NCBI RefSeq assembly: GCF_002770725.1
Contig: NZ_NQVN01000011.1
Coordinates: 1 to 64,000, forward strand
DNA: 64,000 bases
Source: Pleomorphomonas carboxyditropha
Lineage (GTDB): Bacteria > Pseudomonadota > Alphaproteobacteria > Rhizobiales > Pleomorphomonadaceae
Direction of reading: 5' to 3'
Positions 3,824 to 64,000 of this stretch are shown here, piece after piece (position 1 is the first letter of the stretch; the number at the start of each line of letters is the position of its first letter). The position numbers were made by a program, and so were the translations under genes. Below the pieces are notes generated by a model that saw only the letters and a program-made list of their open reading frames with translations, was not told the DNA's origin and did no database searches.

Positions 3824-5521
3824 TCATGAATCGCTATTCTGGGCGTCGAGCAGGGCCTCGAGATAGCTGAGCACCGACTGGGCCTCGCTGATCTTGGCCT
3901 GGATGTTGGCGTAGCGCGCCGTCAGGTTGTCCTTGTAGGTCTCCGCCCGATCGGTGATGGTGTCGATCTGGTCCTGGTATTCGTCGTTCTTTTCCTCAAG
4001 ACTCGCCACGACGTTGGTAATCGAGCCGTCGTCGTCGTCGATGGCGGCTTCGGTGGCGTTGTAGATCTGCTCGGCGATGCCGGCGGCCTGCGTCACGGTG
4101 ACCGACTGGCTGGTGCTGCCGGTGAACACGAAGGTGTAGCCCTCGTAGGCGGTGCCGGCCACGCCCTTGATGCCGTGGCCGGTGCTGGTGACGGTGAACA
4201 GCCCGCTCTCGCCGTCGACGGTCACGCCGGTGATGTTGCCGTCGTCGTCGACGGTGATGTCGAGCGTGAAGGTCGACGGCGCGCTGGTGCCGCGATAGAG
4301 GATGCCGAGGTCGCTCGACGAGCTCTCGAACGAATAGGAAAACAGTTGCTGGATGATGTCCGGATCGCTGTTCAGGACATCGTTCAACGTGTCCTCGTCA
4401 TACTCGAGGTAATTGCTCTCGTCGAAGCTGAGGCCGATCGCCGACATCGAGACGTCGTCGAGCGAGAAGGTCAGCGCCGAGGCGATCTGCTGATTGATGG
4501 TGCGGATGGTGCTGTCGCCGAACAGCACCGCGTCGGCGGAAGCGCCGCCGCTCGATGACGTCTCCTGTTCCGACAGCGCCCATTCCCGGTAGGCGTTGTA
4601 GGCGTCGACGAAGGCGACCACCGCGCTCTTGATGTCGGTCAGATTCTGATCGATCTCGACCGTGACGGACTGGTCGTCGTCCGTCGTGCCGGTAAGGTAG
4701 AAGGTCAGCCCGTCGATCACATCGTCGACTTCATTGGACGACCGGGTGATGGTGACGCCGTCGATGGTGAAGATCGCCTGCTGCGAGGCTTGCAGCTCGT
4801 CGGCGAAGCCGCCGTCGTCGTCGACGATGCCGAGGCTCTGCAGGATGCCGTCATCGTCGCCGACCGAAATGGTCTGGCCGGTATCCACCGTCGTCAGGAT
4901 GAGCTCGTAGGAGGAATCGGACACCTTCAGCACGGTGGCCTTGACGCCGCTGGTGTCGCTCTCCTCGTTGATGGCGCTCGCGATATCCGAAAGCGACATA
5001 TCCTCGGTGACGTCGATGGAGACGCTGTCGCCGTCTTCGGTGCCGATGCTGAATGTGCCCGACAGCGAGAGCGCCGCCGACGACGAGGCATAGTTGCCGC
5101 TCGCCACCTTCTGCGCCGTGGCGAGCTGGCTGATCGTGATGGAATAGCTGCCCGTGTCGGTGCCGGCCTCGGCCGATACGGTAAGGACGGAACTTGCGGT
5201 GACGCCGCCGACACCGGTCAAATACGCTTCGCGTTCCAGGAAGACGTCGGTGTCGCTTGCCGAGGAATCGGTGACGGCCCTGAGGGCGTCCGCCGCATCC
5301 TGGAGGGTTTCGAGCAGATCGGCCGCGTCGTTATAGGCCGATATCTTGGACTCGTTGGTCGATATCTTGGTCTCGTAGGTGTCCGCGGCGGCAAGCTTGG
5401 CTTCGTAGAGCTCCTCGATCAGCCCGTCCCAGTCGATGGACGTGACGTCGGAGGACGCATAGCTCGACGCGGAGGTCGAACTTGTCGTCGTCGTAGAGGA
5501 GGTGCTTGAAGTCGTCGTCAT
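3824..5521 (-). CDS. fliD: Flagellar filament cap protein FliD
   Basis: A 565-residue filament cap (HAP2). It begins with a Ser/Thr-rich stretch, then the FliD N-terminal domain from about residue 27 (DVTSIDWDGLIEELYEAKLA, as key residues). Beta-rich central parts include GSYSITISQLATAQKVASG at about 130-150, a standard FliD signature. The C-terminal FliD domain contains LGLSFDESNYLEYDEDTLNDVL at about 360-385 and ends in a long coiled-coil helix (DRAETYKDNLTARYANIQAKI) before the last 25 residues. FliD caps the filament and folds flagellin at the tip. It is placed between fliC and fliS; its stop is 20 bases before the fliS start. Confidence 0.93.
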   Translation of the reverse strand: MTTTSSTSSTTTTSSTSASSYASSDVTSIDWDGLIEELYEAKLAAADTYETKISTNESKISAYNDAADLLETLQDAADALRAVTDSSASDTDVFLEREAYLTGVGGVTASSVLTVSAEAGTDTGSYSITISQLATAQKVASGNYASSSAALSLSGTFSIGTEDGDSVSIDVTEDMSLSDIASAINEESDTSGVKATVLKVSDSSYELILTTVDTGQTISVGDDDGILQSLGIVDDDGGFADELQASQQAIFTIDGVTITRSSNEVDDVIDGLTFYLTGTTDDDQSVTVEIDQNLTDIKSAVVAFVDAYNAYREWALSEQETSSSGGASADAVLFGDSTIRTINQQIASALTFSLDDVSMSAIGLSFDESNYLEYDEDTLNDVLNSDPDIIQQLFSYSFESSSSDLGILYRGTSAPSTFTLDITVDDDGNITGVTVDGESGLFTVTSTGHGIKGVAGTAYEGYTFVFTGSTSQSVTVTQAAGIAEQIYNATEAAIDDDDGSITNVVASLEEKNDEYQDQIDTITDRAETYKDNLTARYANIQAKISEAQSVLSYLEALLDAQNSDS

Positions 5522-5551
5522 GTCCCTACCCTCGACGCTGGCCGCGGAGGT

Positions 5552-5579
5552 GCGCCGGCGGCGTTCTTTCCGCCGGCGC
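5552..5579 (-). terminator. GC-rich hairpin between fliC and fliD
   Basis: A perfect 10-bp stem, GCGCCGGCGG (5552-5561) with CCGCCGGCGC (5570-5579), and an 8-base loop. It lies between the fliC stop and the fliD start. No T-run follows on the minus strand, so it may act as a partial attenuator or as a 3' stabiliser that keeps fliC mRNA far more abundant than fliD. Confidence 0.6.
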
Positions 5580-5588
5580 CGTTCGAAA

Positions 5589-6413
5589 TTACTGCATCAG
5601 CTTCAGGAGGTTCTGCGTCAGGCTGTTGGCCGACGACGCCGCCGCCACGGCGGCCTGCACCATCACCTGCGACGAGGCGAGCTTGGCTTCTTCCGCCGCG
5701 ACATCGACGTCGGCGATGGCCGAATTGGCCGCCTCGAGGTTTTCGATCTGCGTTGCGATCGATTCCGAGCTGAACTGGAACTGGCTTTCCTGGGCGCCGA
5801 TGCTGGCGCGTGCCTGCGACACGGTGCTGATGGCCGTATCGAGCGCCGTCAGCGCGTCGTTGGCGTTGGACTGGCTCGTGACATCGAGGCTGTTGACGCC
5901 GAGCGTCGTGGAGTCGAGGGCCGACAGGGTGATCGAGATGGTATCGGAGCTCGACGAGCCGACCATGACCGTGACGCCGCTGGAGAACATGTTGTTGGCG
6001 GTCAGCAGGCTCTCCGAGTTGAAGCGGGTGCCGCTGGCGATGGTGTCGATCTGATCGACCAGAGCGCCGAATTCCTCGTCGATATAGGTACGCTCGGTAT
6101 CGGTCACCGTACCGGAGGCCGACTCGGTGGCCAGCACCTTCATGCGCTGCAGGATATCGGAGATGTTGGAGGCGCCGCCGTCGGCCGTCTGCAACACGGC
6201 GATGGCGTTGGTGGCGTTGGTCGCCGCCTGGCCGAGCGTCGCGACATCGGACTGGACGCGGGTCGAGATGGCGAGGCCGGCGGCGTCGTCCGAGGCCTGG
6301 GCGATCCGGGAGCCGGACGCCAGCTTGGACAGGGACGAGGACTGGGCCGCGGCATTGATGTTGAGGTAGCGGACGGCGGAATTGGCGGCGGTGTTGGTCG
6401 CGATGACGGGCAT
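5589..6413 (-). CDS. fliC: Flagellin FliC (short type)
   Basis: A 274-residue flagellin. The N-terminal D0/D1 part shows SSLSKLASGSRIAQASDD and AAGLAIS (about residues 25-50), the hallmark of flagellins. The C-terminal D1/D0 part (ANSAIADVDVAAEEAKLASS to NSLTQNLLKLMQ, about 229-274) is equally typical. Only about 100 residues separate the conserved ends, so there is almost no D2/D3 surface domain; the filament should be thin and smooth. The central part is Ser/Thr-rich. It is secreted by the flagellar export system with help from the fliS product and heads the fliC-fliD-fliS group; an ECF sigma gene lies 146 bases upstream on the same strand. Confidence 0.95.
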   Translation of the reverse strand: MPVIATNTAANSAVRYLNINAAAQSSSLSKLASGSRIAQASDDAAGLAISTRVQSDVATLGQAATNATNAIAVLQTADGGASNISDILQRMKVLATESASGTVTDTERTYIDEEFGALVDQIDTIASGTRFNSESLLTANNMFSSGVTVMVGSSSSDTISITLSALDSTTLGVNSLDVTSQSNANDALTALDTAISTVSQARASIGAQESQFQFSSESIATQIENLEAANSAIADVDVAAEEAKLASSQVMVQAAVAAASSANSLTQNLLKLMQ

Positions 6414-61290: not shown

Positions 61291-61491
61291 TCCCGGCTCC
61301 CTGGATGACCGGTGGCGGCCGAATGCCGACGCTGGAGACGAGCAGTGGCGGATCGGAGAGCCGACGAGGCCATGCCGGCATCCGGCCCTCGATAACTTTG
61401 CTAAAAAGCCCTGAAATCCGCGAAAACGATGATAACCATAATCAATTAACGCTTGCGTGCAATAGTGGGCGGCATCTTTACGGGGGATGTC

Positions 61492-62070
61492 ATGTATCGC
61501 GTCTTCACCCTGTTGGGACTGTCCCTGTGCCTGGCCGCCGCCTTGCCGGCCCAAGCGGCCACCAGCGGCGACCCGAGTTTCGACAACGTCCCGATGCGGC
61601 CATCGCTGCCGGCGGGCGGGCACGCCGGCGAATTGGCGATGACGCTGCCGCCGGCCGCCGACATTGCCGAAGCCCTCGGCAGCGGTCCCGCGACGCGCCA
61701 GGCCCTCGGCCCCAAAGTCATGGTGCGGGTCAATCTCTCCAGGCAAAGGATGACCGTGCTGGTGCGTGGCAAGGTCGCCCATGTCTGGAAGGTCTCGACC
61801 GCCAGGAGCGGCTACAAGACGCCGACCGGCTTCTGGACGCCCTATCGCATGCACGTCATGTGGCACTCGCGGAAATACGACAACGCGCCGATGCCGCACT
61901 CCATCTTCTTCTACGAGGGCTACGCCATCCATGCGACGCCCTATGTGGCGCGGCTCGGCAAGCCGGCCTCGCATGGCTGCGTCCGCCTGCACCCCGACAA
62001 CGCCAAGCTGCTGTTCGCCCTGGTCCGGCAATACGGCCCGTCGGCGGTACGCGTCTCCGTCGAGAAATAA
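61492..62070 (+). CDS. L,D-transpeptidase (YkuD family)
   Basis: A 192-residue envelope enzyme. Start ATG 61492 with GGGGGA upstream; signal peptide MYRVFTLLGLSLCLAAALPA with cleavage near AQA/AT (residues 22-23). The YkuD catalytic motif is at 147-166: His147, then Ser160-His161-Gly162-Cys163-Val-Arg (ASHGCVRLHP), with Cys163 as nucleophile. Such enzymes make 3-3 cross-links in peptidoglycan or anchor proteins to it. It has no peptidoglycan-binding domain. It is divergent from nnrU. Confidence 0.92.
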   Translation: MYRVFTLLGLSLCLAAALPAQAATSGDPSFDNVPMRPSLPAGGHAGELAMTLPPAADIAEALGSGPATRQALGPKVMVRVNLSRQRMTVLVRGKVAHVWKVSTARSGYKTPTGFWTPYRMHVMWHSRKYDNAPMPHSIFFYEGYAIHATPYVARLGKPASHGCVRLHPDNAKLLFALVRQYGPSAVRVSVEK

Positions 62071-62706
62071 GCCGCCGATTTCAGGCAGCGCCCCGACCTG
62101 GAAGGAACACGGGCGGCGCCGGCATCGGCCAAGCGCGCCGGCCCTGCTCCCGCCCTCCTTGTCGTCAACGGCATCATCCATGACATCGCTGTCAAAACCG
62201 GGCGATCGTCCATGGCGGCGCGGGCCGACGCGGAAAACGATTCAAGCGCGATCCGCCGACCAAGGACGCCCCGGGCAAAACCGATTCAGGACCATTGGGG
62301 CATCTACGTAGAGATTTTTGAGACCTTCCAAACTCAAACCCTCCCCGCATAACCATCCCATGGCATTCAAAATTTCTTTCGGTGGGTTTTAGCGCAGGTT
62401 TATGCTGCAATGCATCATTGGCTGATTTATGATTATATCACCTCAAAAAATCCCTCATCTACCCCAAATAGCGGCAAATCGGCGACCGACCCATCGTCTA
62501 AAGTCGTATTTTAGCCGCATTTCGACGTCGAAGGGGATGGCTCTCCAGGGCACAAATGCTGCCGCGCGAAAACTGCATTCCTGACATGCAGGACCCCCTC
62601 TAGCCCCGCATGGCTCGTTCGCCTAAATGTCTGGGTGTCGAGAGCGAAGCGCAGCAGACGAAAGACTGAAGAGCGCAGCGCCTCACAACCCGAATGGATG
62701 AACGAA
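62071..62706. promoter_or_regulatory. 636-base non-coding region upstream of DUF1127 gene
   Basis: No convincing gene. About 62300-62520 is strikingly AT-rich for this genome, with stretches such as TTTATGATTATATCACC, which suits a regulated promoter for the DUF1127 gene and RNA array. I could not define -35 and -10 boxes of the RpoH type by eye. A further ORF frame at 62635 would extend the DUF1127 protein N-terminally but lacks homology. Confidence 0.5.
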
Positions 62707-62856
62707 ATGCTGGATACCGTTGTCAACAAGCTCCGCTCCTACCGCAAGTACCAGGAGACCTATCGCGAGCTCTCCCGTCTGAGCACCCGCGAGCTTGCCG
62801 ACCTGGGCATCTCCCGCGGTGAAATCTCGAACGTCGCCCGCAAGGCCACGCTCTGA
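62707..62856 (+). CDS. DUF1127 small protein (CcaF1-like)
   Basis: A 49-residue basic protein starting MLDTVVNKLRSYRKYQ; an in-frame ATG at 62698 adds three residues. The DUF1127 motif RELSRLSTRELADLGISRGEI (about 20-41, key LSxRxLxDLGIxRxxI) is complete, followed by ARKATL. In Rhodobacter sphaeroides a DUF1127 protein (CcaF1) is encoded directly before the CcsR1-4 small RNAs and binds RNA. The present gene is followed after 16 bases by nine hairpins bearing the same CCTCCTCCC motif. Co-transcription is probable. Confidence 0.93.
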   Translation: MLDTVVNKLRSYRKYQETYRELSRLSTRELADLGISRGEISNVARKATL

Positions 62857-62872
62857 ACCCACGAGATTAGGC

Positions 62873-63225
62873 TCGCCCGCCGAACTTTCCTCCTCCCAGT
62901 TCCGCGGCGACCCTGATAGACACCCTGCCGGTTCCTCCTCCCTCCGGCCGGTGTCTTGGAAAGATGGTCCTCCTCCCCCATCTTTCCCTTAGGCGATGAT
63001 GGTCCTCTCCTCCTCCCTGGACCATTTCGCCGCTTTTGTGAGTACCGACCTGCCCTTCCTCCTCCCTGGGCAACGTCGGTTTGGTCGCAGCAATCCTCCT
63101 CCCTTGCTGTGACCGTCCTGCGATGCTCCTCCTCCCGCATCGCAGGTTAGCTGTAGCGGCATACCTCCTCCCATGCCGTCTACAGAAAATTGCAGCGCCC
63201 ACCGGATCTCCTCCCCCGGTGGGCG
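62873..63225 (+). ncRNA. Tandem 'cuckoo'/CcsR-type small RNA array, nine hairpins
   Basis: Nine consecutive stem-loops: 62873-62910, 62918-62956, 62958-62987, 62992-63031, 63044-63080, 63083-63114, 63117-63146, 63151-63185 and 63196-63225. The first eight show CCTCCTCCC in the loop; the ninth shows TCTCCTCCC. Stems differ in sequence yet pair well: for example GGAAAGATGG with CCATCTTTCC (62958-62987), and CCTGCGATGC with GCATCGCAGG (63117-63146). The loops would be anti-Shine-Dalgarno sequences. This is the defining pattern of cuckoo/CcsR small RNAs of alphaproteobacteria, where they are stress-induced and processed from a DUF1127 transcript. Linkers of 7, 12 and 9 bases after hairpins 1, 4 and 8 are A/T-rich or longest and may be cleavage sites. 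Confidence 0.9.
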
Positions 63226-63234
63226 TTTGCATTT
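63196..63234 (+). terminator. Terminator of the DUF1127-sRNA transcript
   Basis: CGCCCACCGG (63196-63205) pairs with CCGGTGGGCG (63216-63225), a perfect 10-bp stem, followed by TTTGCATTTT. It is at once the ninth array hairpin (loop ATCTCCTCCC) and the rho-independent end of the transcript, 90 bases before trmFO. Confidence 0.88.
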
Positions 63235-63323
63235 TCGGGATATGCCGATCGGTCGCCCGCCTCTCCCGCCGAGCATCGGGAAAAGCGCTGCACGCGGCGG
63301 CGGGACGTGCTATCCCCCCCGCC

Positions 63324-64000
63324 ATGAGCCAACAGACCCCCGCCCCCATTCACGTCGTCGGCGCCGGCCTCGCCGGTTCGGAAGCCGCCTGGCAGATCGT
63401 CTCCCGCGGCATTCCGGTCGTGCTTCACGAGATGCGGCCGCGTCGCGGCACCGAAGCGCACAAGACCGGCGGCTTCGCCGAGCTGGTCTGCTCCAACTCC
63501 TTCCGCTCCGACGACCATGAGAACAACGCCGTCGGCTTGCTGCACGAGGAGATGCGCCGCGCCGGTTCGCTGGTCATGAGCTCGGCGGACGCCAACAAGG
63601 TGCCGGCCGGCGGCGCGCTGGCCGTCGACCGCGACGGCTTCTCGGACAACGTCACCCAGACGCTGCGCGCCCATCCGCTGGTCACCGTCGTCGAGGACGA
63701 GGTCGACGGCCTGCCGCCCGAGGAATGGGGCAGCGTGATCGTCGCCACCGGCCCGCTGACCTCGCCGGCGCTCGCCGAGGCCATCCGCTCCAGGACCGGC
63801 GCCGCGTCGCTCGCCTTCTTCGACGCCATCGCGCCGATCGTCCATTTCGACAGCATCGACATGGACAAGGCCTGGTTCCAGTCGCGCTACGACAAGCCCG
63901 GTCCCGGCGGCACCGGCGCCGACTACATCAATTGCCCGCTGGACCGCGATGAGTACGAGGCCTTCGTCGACGCGCTCATCGCCGGCGACAAGACCGAATT
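63324..64000 (+). CDS. trmFO: TrmFO, folate-dependent tRNA uridine-54 methyltransferase, N-terminal part
   Basis: The gene runs off the right edge; about 225 codons are present, starting at ATG 63324 (GCCATGAGC). The N-terminal FAD-binding dinucleotide fold reads [18 protein letters not shown]. TrmFO signatures follow: [32 protein letters not shown] (given as key residues) and [14 protein letters not shown] with [15 protein letters not shown]. The enzyme makes 5-methyluridine-54 in tRNA using methylene-tetrahydrofolate and FADH2. It is found in most alphaproteobacteria in place of TrmA. Full length is expected to be about 470 residues. Confidence 0.95.

What the first reader, a model, noticed from the sequence alone, without database searches (positions are those of the whole stretch)
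62873..63225. Nine-hairpin anti-Shine-Dalgarno RNA array downstream of a DUF1127 gene
Nine consecutive stem-loops have divergent stems but nearly constant loops (CCTCCTCCC in eight, TCTCCTCCC in the ninth). Stems differ at almost every position while keeping base pairing, which is strong evidence of selection on structure. The loops can pair with ribosome-binding sites or mimic the 16S rRNA 3' end. The layout equals the Rhodobacter sphaeroides ccaF1-CcsR1-4 locus and the cuckoo RNA family, but with more hairpins than the four two-hairpin RNAs there. The array could be a titratable set of translation regulators released by RNA cleavage.
Basis: partly seen in the sequence, partly recalled or inferred. 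Interest (0 to 1): 0.95.

Follow-up and report, generated by a model that had tools for sequence, protein, structure and literature searches.

The report
Nine-loop anti-ribosome-binding-site RNA array
Behind a tiny DUF1127 gene, this bacterium (genus Pleomorphomonas) carries nine RNA hairpins that show the same loop, complementary to the ribosome-binding sites of many of its mRNAs; it is a long version of a known alphaproteobacterial small-RNA family, probably switched on by a redox-sensing regulator.

Summary
Nine stem-loops (62866-63230, + strand) carry CCUCCUCCC (eight) or UCUCCUCCC (ninth). The fold has z = -15, 30 of 109 stem pairs show changes on both sides, and G-U outnumbers A-C in relatives' stems (23 to 6), which fits a + strand RNA. 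The last three hairpins match Rfam ar14 above threshold, and gene order matches the published DUF1127/CcsR "CIN1" arrangement. It belongs to the known ar14/cuckoo/CcsR kind.

(1) Nine loops is no record: 7 of 53 DUF1127-anchored loci have 10-14 exact motifs. Distinctive is one unbroken run with one terminal hairpin, nine loops in 11 of 14 genomes of the genus. (2) The promoter carries the published LsrB/VtlR box, not a recognisable RpoH promoter; the box keeps its place in other genera, and the genome has an lsrB orthologue beside trxB. (3) The loop complements strong Shine-Dalgarno sites; ABC-transporter binding-protein genes are enriched among them, but this cannot be separated from their having strong sites generally. 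Transcription, processing and repression are inferred.

The parts
62575..62587 (+). LsrB/VtlR (LysR-type) box GCATTCCTGACAT = GCAT-N3-TG-N3-T, 132 nt before the DUF1127 start; inside TGCATTCCTGACATGCA
   Evidence: 4 matches of the pattern in 64 kb, both strands; at -130 to -150 in 19 of 53 DUF1127 loci against 0, 0, 1 and 0 of 52 in four control windows; consensus from PMC8844928 and PMC7486931 (passages)
62596..62602 (+). CCCTCTA, invariant in 10 of 10 aligned loci, where a -35 would lie
   Evidence: function inferred
62622..62628 (+). -10-like CCTAAAT; predicted transcription start near 62636, which puts the box at -61 to -49
   Evidence: start chosen by analogy with the abcR1 promoter, not measured
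62707..62856 (+). DUF1127 gene, 49 aa
   Evidence: PF06568 E 1.4e-14
62866..62917 (+). hairpin 1, loop CCTCCTCCC at 62889-62897
62919..62955 (+). hairpin 2, loop motif at 62934
62958..62987 (+). hairpin 3, loop motif at 62969
62992..63031 (+). hairpin 4, loop motif at 63009
63032..63043 (+). longest linker (GCTTTTGTGAGT), single-stranded in the model; possible processing site
   Evidence: function inferred
63045..63080 (+). hairpin 5, loop motif at 63058
63083..63114 (+). hairpin 6, loop motif at 63095
63117..63146 (+). hairpin 7, loop motif at 63128
63151..63185 (+). hairpin 8, loop motif at 63164
63192..63230 (+). hairpin 9, loop TCTCCTCCC at 63207; terminal hairpin, stem followed by TTTGCATTTT; probable terminator
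   Evidence: the only hairpin whose stem sequence is clearly shared with Chthonobacter and Stappia; the terminator scan did not list it (which allows loops of 3-8 only)
63111..63231 (+). match to Rfam RF02344 ar14 over hairpins 7-9
   Evidence: 81.1 bits, gathering 58.8, E 4.8e-13

Best explanation
This is an ar14/CcsR-type ('cuckoo') small-RNA locus: one transcript, starting near 62636, encodes a 49-aa DUF1127 protein and then nine hairpins that each present an anti-Shine-Dalgarno loop. Inferred mechanism: LsrB/VtlR binds the box at 62575-62587 and activates transcription under oxidative or nutrient stress. The 3' part is left as one or several stable RNAs. Each loop pairs with GGGAGGA/GGAGG-type ribosome-binding sites, above all of ABC-transporter genes and some metabolic enzymes, and blocks their translation. 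The nearly identical loops act redundantly and raise the dose of binding sites per transcript; the varied stems hold each loop open without making the array a recombining repeat. Shown: anatomy, structure, family match, box conservation, regulator orthologue; strand supported. Inferred: transcription, processing, targets, repression.
For: Family: ar14 81.1 bits; in the own genome four ar14 matches at E <= 0.001, all in this array, two over the cut-off, and all eight motif pairs of the genome lie in it. Structure. Strand: at the 105 pairs that are Watson-Crick in the window, the other nine rows show 23 G-U cells against 6 A-C. Locus type: 37 of 53 DUF1127 loci found by protein similarity have at least two CTCCTCCC within 1.2 kb downstream. 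Regulator: box at -130 to -150 in 19 of 53 loci against 0-1 of 52 in control windows; the LysR protein beside trxB on contig C25 matches A. tumefaciens LsrB (PDB 9hh1) with 449 bits; LsrB activates NfeR1, the founding ar14 RNA, in S. meliloti (PMC10746234, passages). Targets: GGGAGGA-N5-11-ATG occurs 103 times in the genome against 10 for the reversed pattern; of 63 SBP_bac_1 genes 13 have a 7-nt loop complement before an in-frame ATG against 4 of 285 background ORFs, OR 18, p 1e-7; the single GGGAGGAGG-N3-10-ATG site of the genome opens a frame with an ABC-transporter ATPase start; NfeR1's tested targets include two binding-protein mRNAs and ntrB.
Against: No expression data. The target test is confounded: binding-protein genes have strong GGAGG sites in general (23 of 63 against 11 of 285), and among genes with such a site the loop-7 share is not clearly different (13 of 23 against 4 of 11). 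The full 9-nt complement before ATG occurs only once. The consensus scan found no sigma-70 promoter and no terminator in 62071-63330. The LsrB box is missing from 20 of the 37 loci with an array, most of them Rhodobacterales by name, so the regulator is not a property of the whole family.
Confidence: 0.75

Rival explanations
1. The array acts mainly on the DUF1127 protein: the hairpins are a binding platform or sponge for the DUF1127 (CcaF1-like) RNA-binding protein encoded beside them, as CsrB is for CsrA, and the anti-SD loops are secondary.
For: DUF1127 and loops are linked in 37 of 53 loci; CcaF1 of R. sphaeroides binds RNA and promotes CcsR maturation (PMC10253847, passages); repeated identical loops resemble a sponge.
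Against: The ar14 RNA NfeR1 works by base pairing with redundant aSD loops; loops match SD sites of the genome; not every DUF1127 protein is known to bind RNA (PMC12501420, passages: no evidence for Salmonella YjiS, and protein-protein action on PhoR in A. tumefaciens).
Confidence: 0.12
2. Global ribosome-level effect: the excess of anti-SD loops competes with the 16S tail for all strong SD sites and lowers translation of SD-dependent mRNAs in general rather than of a chosen set.
For: The loop complements common strong SD sites of the genome; the enrichment holds for GGAGG cores in general.
Against: The known ar14 member has defined targets; in five example sites the loop beats the 16S tail at three (GGGAGGA, GGAGGAG types) and loses at two.
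Confidence: 0.1
3. The hairpins are cis elements only: an mRNA 3' stabiliser and terminator for the DUF1127 gene that insulates it from trmFO, with no trans function.
For: Position between the DUF1127 stop and trmFO; terminal hairpin shared across genera.
Against: Loop sequence is more conserved than stems (99% against 92%), which a stabiliser does not need; Stappia repeats gene plus hairpins three times; CcsR and NfeR1 act in trans (literature passages).
Confidence: 0.03

Closest known systems
ar14 family / NfeR1 of Sinorhizobium meliloti (Rfam RF02344; PMC10746234, PMC8844928, passages)
   Same: CCUCCUCCC in hairpin loops, divergent stems, similar last hairpin (Rfam alignment), LsrB-type box in the promoter, binding-protein mRNAs as targets (there tested for two, here predicted).
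   Different: Three hairpins, 115-123 nt, there; nine in one run behind a DUF1127 gene here.
ccaF1-CcsR1-4 of Rhodobacter sphaeroides and the 'CIN1' DUF1127/cuckoo locus (PMC10253847, passages; Reinkensmeier and Giegerich 2015 not held, known only through citations)
   Same: Short DUF1127 gene followed by hairpin RNAs of the same kind, same strand, hairpin terminator at the 3' end.
   Different: R. sphaeroides: RpoHI/HII promoter and four sRNAs cut out by RNase E (two hairpins each is recalled). Here: LsrB box, single run with one terminal hairpin, no clear internal unit borders.
Stappia DUF1127 locus (L048-L050)
   Same: Same box at -131 to -133 and nine exact loops in L048 and L050, eight in L049.
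   Different: Three tandem modules, each a DUF1127 gene plus hairpins; in L048, where this was compared, each module has its own terminal hairpin, instead of one gene with nine hairpins.
AbcR1/AbcR2 (ar15)
   Same: aSD motifs, ABC-transporter targets, LsrB control of AbcR1 (PMC8844928, passages).
   Different: Two distinct aSD motifs, Hfq-binding; no ar15 match at Rfam threshold in 12 kb around lsrB here.

Membership tests
ar14 (Rfam RF02344) | Covariance-model score above the gathering cut-off | tested here: met
   63111-63231, 81.1 bits against 58.8; 63040-63152 (hairpins 5-7) 64.4 bits also above; two further overlapping matches, 45.9 and 42.7, below
ar14 (Rfam RF02344) | Three hairpins with CCUCCUCCC loops | tested here: not met
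   Nine hairpins in one run. The array works like ar14 and contains ar14-scoring parts, but is longer than the defined RNA
ar14 (Rfam RF02344) | LsrB-activated transcription (known for NfeR1) | tested here: inconclusive
   Box and regulator orthologue present; binding not testable
CcsR / CIN1 (cuckoo) locus | Short DUF1127 gene directly upstream on the same strand | tested here: met
   62707-62856; first hairpin starts after a 9-nt gap
CcsR / CIN1 (cuckoo) locus | Repeated hairpins with anti-SD loop and divergent stems | tested here: met
CcsR / CIN1 (cuckoo) locus | RpoHI/RpoHII promoter (R. sphaeroides) | tested here: not met
   No match of a strict or a looser RpoH-like pattern in 450 nt; a divergent site is not excluded
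CcsR / CIN1 (cuckoo) locus | RNase E processing into separate sRNAs, helped by the DUF1127 protein | not testable with these tools
   needs RNA data
LsrB/VtlR regulon | GCAT-N3-TG-N3-T box at promoter distance | tested here: met
   62575-62587; same place in 19 of 53 loci against 0-1 of 52 in control windows
CsrB-type protein sponge | GGA motifs in the loops (recalled) | tested here: not met
   Loops are CCTCCTCCC on the strand supported as transcribed

The most novel reading that the evidence does not exclude
A polyvalent anti-SD RNA: the nine loops stay on one molecule of about 365 nt that can hold several mRNAs at once. Selection fixes the total loop dose (nine in Pleomorphomonas as 1 x 9, nine in two of three Stappia loci as 3 x 3) rather than the number of sRNAs. 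A redox-sensing LsrB switch would set a stoichiometric budget for transporter translation.
Probability: 0.12. Interest if true: 0.6.

Novelty: new member of a known kind. Interest (0 to 1): 0.36.

Why it matters
The locus joins three things often studied apart: DUF1127 small proteins, anti-SD hairpin RNAs and the LsrB/VtlR regulator of Rhizobiales. In this genome there is a single array with nine loops, so one deletion would test what loop number is for. It also suggests that DUF1127 genes under VtlR control elsewhere should be checked for overlooked hairpin RNAs behind them.

Tried and rejected
Chance or coding origin: rejected by shuffles and covariation. Minus-strand RNA: not favoured, G-U against A-C 23 to 6 in the rows other than the window; the plain count of 53 to 6 is biased, because the structure was drawn on the window with G-U allowed. 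Uniqueness of nine hairpins: rejected. RpoH promoter: not found. A second array in the genome: none seen for ar14 at E <= 0.001, where 150 of 351 first-look candidates were scored, nor by motif pairs. A single CTCCTCCC beside another DUF1127 gene on contig C44 lies inside that gene and is taken as chance. AbcR beside lsrB: no Rfam match at threshold over 12 kb; ar15 was not searched in the whole genome. A first hairpin null that counted any enclosing pairs was uninformative, and a 7-mer count before open ATGs in 464 kb was swamped by internal codons. DUF1127 against solved structures gave one short lectin match that I take as meaningless. One search also counts CTCCTCC, which counts shifted copies of one loop twice; only its CTCCTCCC counts are used. 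(30 of 63 SBP genes) is superseded (63 of 63). One search finds 6 GGGAGGA genes where one search finds 7, probably because its scan of starts ends 450 nt into an open frame.

Full report
What is there. The window lies in or next to the genus Pleomorphomonas: the closest named DUF1127 loci are seven of that genus at 98-100% protein identity (L035-L041). Between an L,D-transpeptidase gene (61453-62070, YkuD) and trmFO (from 63324) lie a promoter region, a 49-aa DUF1127 gene (62707-62856, PF06568 E 1.4e-14) and nine hairpins at 62866-63230. Eight loops read CCTCCTCCC and the last TCTCCTCCC.

Is it more than chance. CCTCCTCCC 8 against 0.9 expected. Fold of the region -167.4 against -99.5 +/- 4.5 kcal/mol in 200 dinucleotide shuffles. 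Each hairpin beats shuffled flanks (8 of 9 with 0 of 300, one with 1%). On ten loci, nine labelled Pleomorphomonas (window included) and one Oryzibacter, 30 of 109 pairs carry changes on both sides against 7.5 in shuffles and at most 13 in slid controls. The structure was derived from the window's own sequence, which favours it over slid versions on the percentage paired; the counts of double changes are the better evidence, and they count sequences, not events. Loops are 99% conserved, stems 92%, other columns 84%. At the 105 of 109 pairs that are Watson-Crick in the window, the nine other rows have 23 G-U cells at 17 pairs and 6 A-C cells at 6 pairs, which favours RNA from the + strand.

How common. 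G007 has seven exact loops in its run; L042, the same contig by its length, has the eighth hairpin with a CTCCTCCT loop and the ninth intact. G010 and G011 are 89% and 86% complete and show broken runs. Runs of three motifs occur in 18 of 20 genomes of the family, 75 of 297 of an order sample and 7 of 387 of a class sample; these samples include the own genome, and at least two of the seven (G043, G141) look like coding tandem repeats. In the order sample many listed hits are lone three-motif units, several per genome; that list was cut. Among 53 DUF1127 loci from named records, 37 have two or more exact motifs within 1.2 kb downstream; seven have 10-14, of which six are Rhodobacterales by my recollection of their genera and one (L086) is an unplaced alphaproteobacterial MAG; the highest is L081 with 14. 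So length is not a record.

How the array is built. Comparing stems, the last hairpin is clearly shared with two Chthonobacter loci and one Stappia locus (18-24 of 26 positions; shuffled maximum 15), while their other hairpins score 11-16. In Rhizobium vallis the last hairpin scores 16, the others 13-15. In Oryzibacter 8 of 9 hairpins match best in the window's order, five of them above the shuffled maximum. In Stappia L048 three tandem DUF1127 genes (Pfam) are each followed by three motifs, and hairpins 3, 6 and 9 match the window's last. Thus similar loops are packaged as 3 x 3 there and 1 x 9 here. Rfam ar14 covers hairpins 7-9 at 81.1 bits and hairpins 5-7 at 64.4; two further overlapping matches are below the cut-off.

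Promoter. The sequence GCATTCCTGACAT at 62575-62587 fits the published LsrB/VtlR box GCAT-N3-TG-N3-T (PMC8844928 and PMC7486931, passages). It is identical in nine of the ten aligned loci and differs in one free position in the tenth. Across 53 loci, 19 have the box between -165 and -110 of the DUF1127 start against 0, 0, 1 and 0 of 52 in four control windows; 17 of 37 loci with an array have it, 2 of 16 without. These loci are related, so the counts are not independent; one of the two (L045) is cut by a contig end. With a start at 62636 the box would lie at -61 to -49, the place reported for the abcR1 promoter; the start was chosen to fit this and is not independent evidence, but a -10-like CTAAAT then falls at -13 to -8. 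The genome has the regulator: the ORF after trxB on contig C25 is a LysR protein matching A. tumefaciens LsrB, PDB 9hh1, with 449 bits; lsrB forms an operon with trxB consistently in Rhizobiales (PMC11975290, passages). LsrB activates NfeR1, an ar14 RNA, in S. meliloti, and VtlR positively regulates DUF1127 genes in Brucella (passages only). A link between LsrB and a DUF1127-hairpin operon is therefore to be expected from print, though none of the passages and listings that I saw states it for such an operon.

Targets. GGGAGGA with ATG 5-11 nt downstream occurs 103 times in the genome, against 10 for the reversed pattern; other GGAGG cores (HGGAGGB) 903 against 218; AAAGGAGG 14 against 9. Of the first 30 of these 103 places, 19 open a frame of at least 100 aa. 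By Pfam, 6 of these 19 are periplasmic binding proteins, one is a MalK-type ATPase, 5 have no family, and others include sugar enzymes, a dehydrogenase E1 component and a trypsin/PDZ protease. CcsR RNAs are reported to affect the pyruvate dehydrogenase complex (title cited); whether L220 is that enzyme was not tested. The one full 9-nt site, GGGAGGAGG-N3-10-ATG, opens a frame that starts as an ABC-transporter ATPase and is cut by the contig end. Seven of 63 SBP_bac_1 genes have a GGGAGGA site directly upstream where 1.1-1.4 would be expected (gene number assumed 4800-5800, 100 of the 103 places listed). With all 63 genes, 13 have a 7-nt loop complement against 4 of 285 background ORFs from 540 kb of contig C11. 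The result against my reading: SBP genes have strong SD sites of the GGAGG kind in general (23 of 63 against 11 of 285), and given such a site the loop-7 share does not clearly differ (13 of 23 against 4 of 11). So the data say that anti-SD loops could hit these genes first, not that the two co-evolved.

Verdict. A well-supported new member of the ar14/CcsR kind with an unusual packaging. Shown: anatomy, selection on structure, family score, conserved LsrB box, presence of LsrB. Supported: strand. Inferred: transcription, processing, targets and repression. Papers PMC4615179, PMC8034643, PMC3346310 and PMC4402390, which define the family, are not held, so whether long single arrays were already described there is unknown to me. 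Checking the draft against the calls changed some counts and wordings but none of the odds.

Noticed in passing
62574-62590: The LsrB box sits inside TGCATTCCTGACATGCA, which also fits TGC-N11-GCA, the NtrC-type motif reported near the NfeR1 promoter; the second half is not kept in L038, L042, L043 and L046, so it may be incidental.
   Followed up: partly
62402-62418: A second palindrome-like stretch (ATGCTGCAATGCATCAT; perfect as ATGCTGCAATGCAGCAT in L038 and L043) lies about 300 nt before the DUF1127 gene and is recognisable in other rows of the alignment.
   Followed up: no
L268 (contig C44), 1323: Two further, longer DUF1127 genes lie side by side in the genome; an LsrB-type box GCATTGCTGCCAT lies about 55 nt before the apparent start of the first, with no hairpin array.
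   Followed up: partly
L044 (JAGSYV010000092.1): A soil MAG has hairpin 5 directly after its DUF1127 gene, as if hairpins 1-4 were lost; misassembly or loss by recombination between loops.
   Followed up: no
L048-L050, 3001-4350: Stappia carries three tandem DUF1127 genes followed by short hairpin units; in L048 only the first has the LsrB box within 250 nt.
   Followed up: partly
L166 (contig C25, 40041): The only GGGAGGAGG-N3-10-ATG site of the genome, a full 9-nt complement of the loop, precedes a frame that begins as an ABC-transporter ATPase at a contig end.
   Followed up: partly
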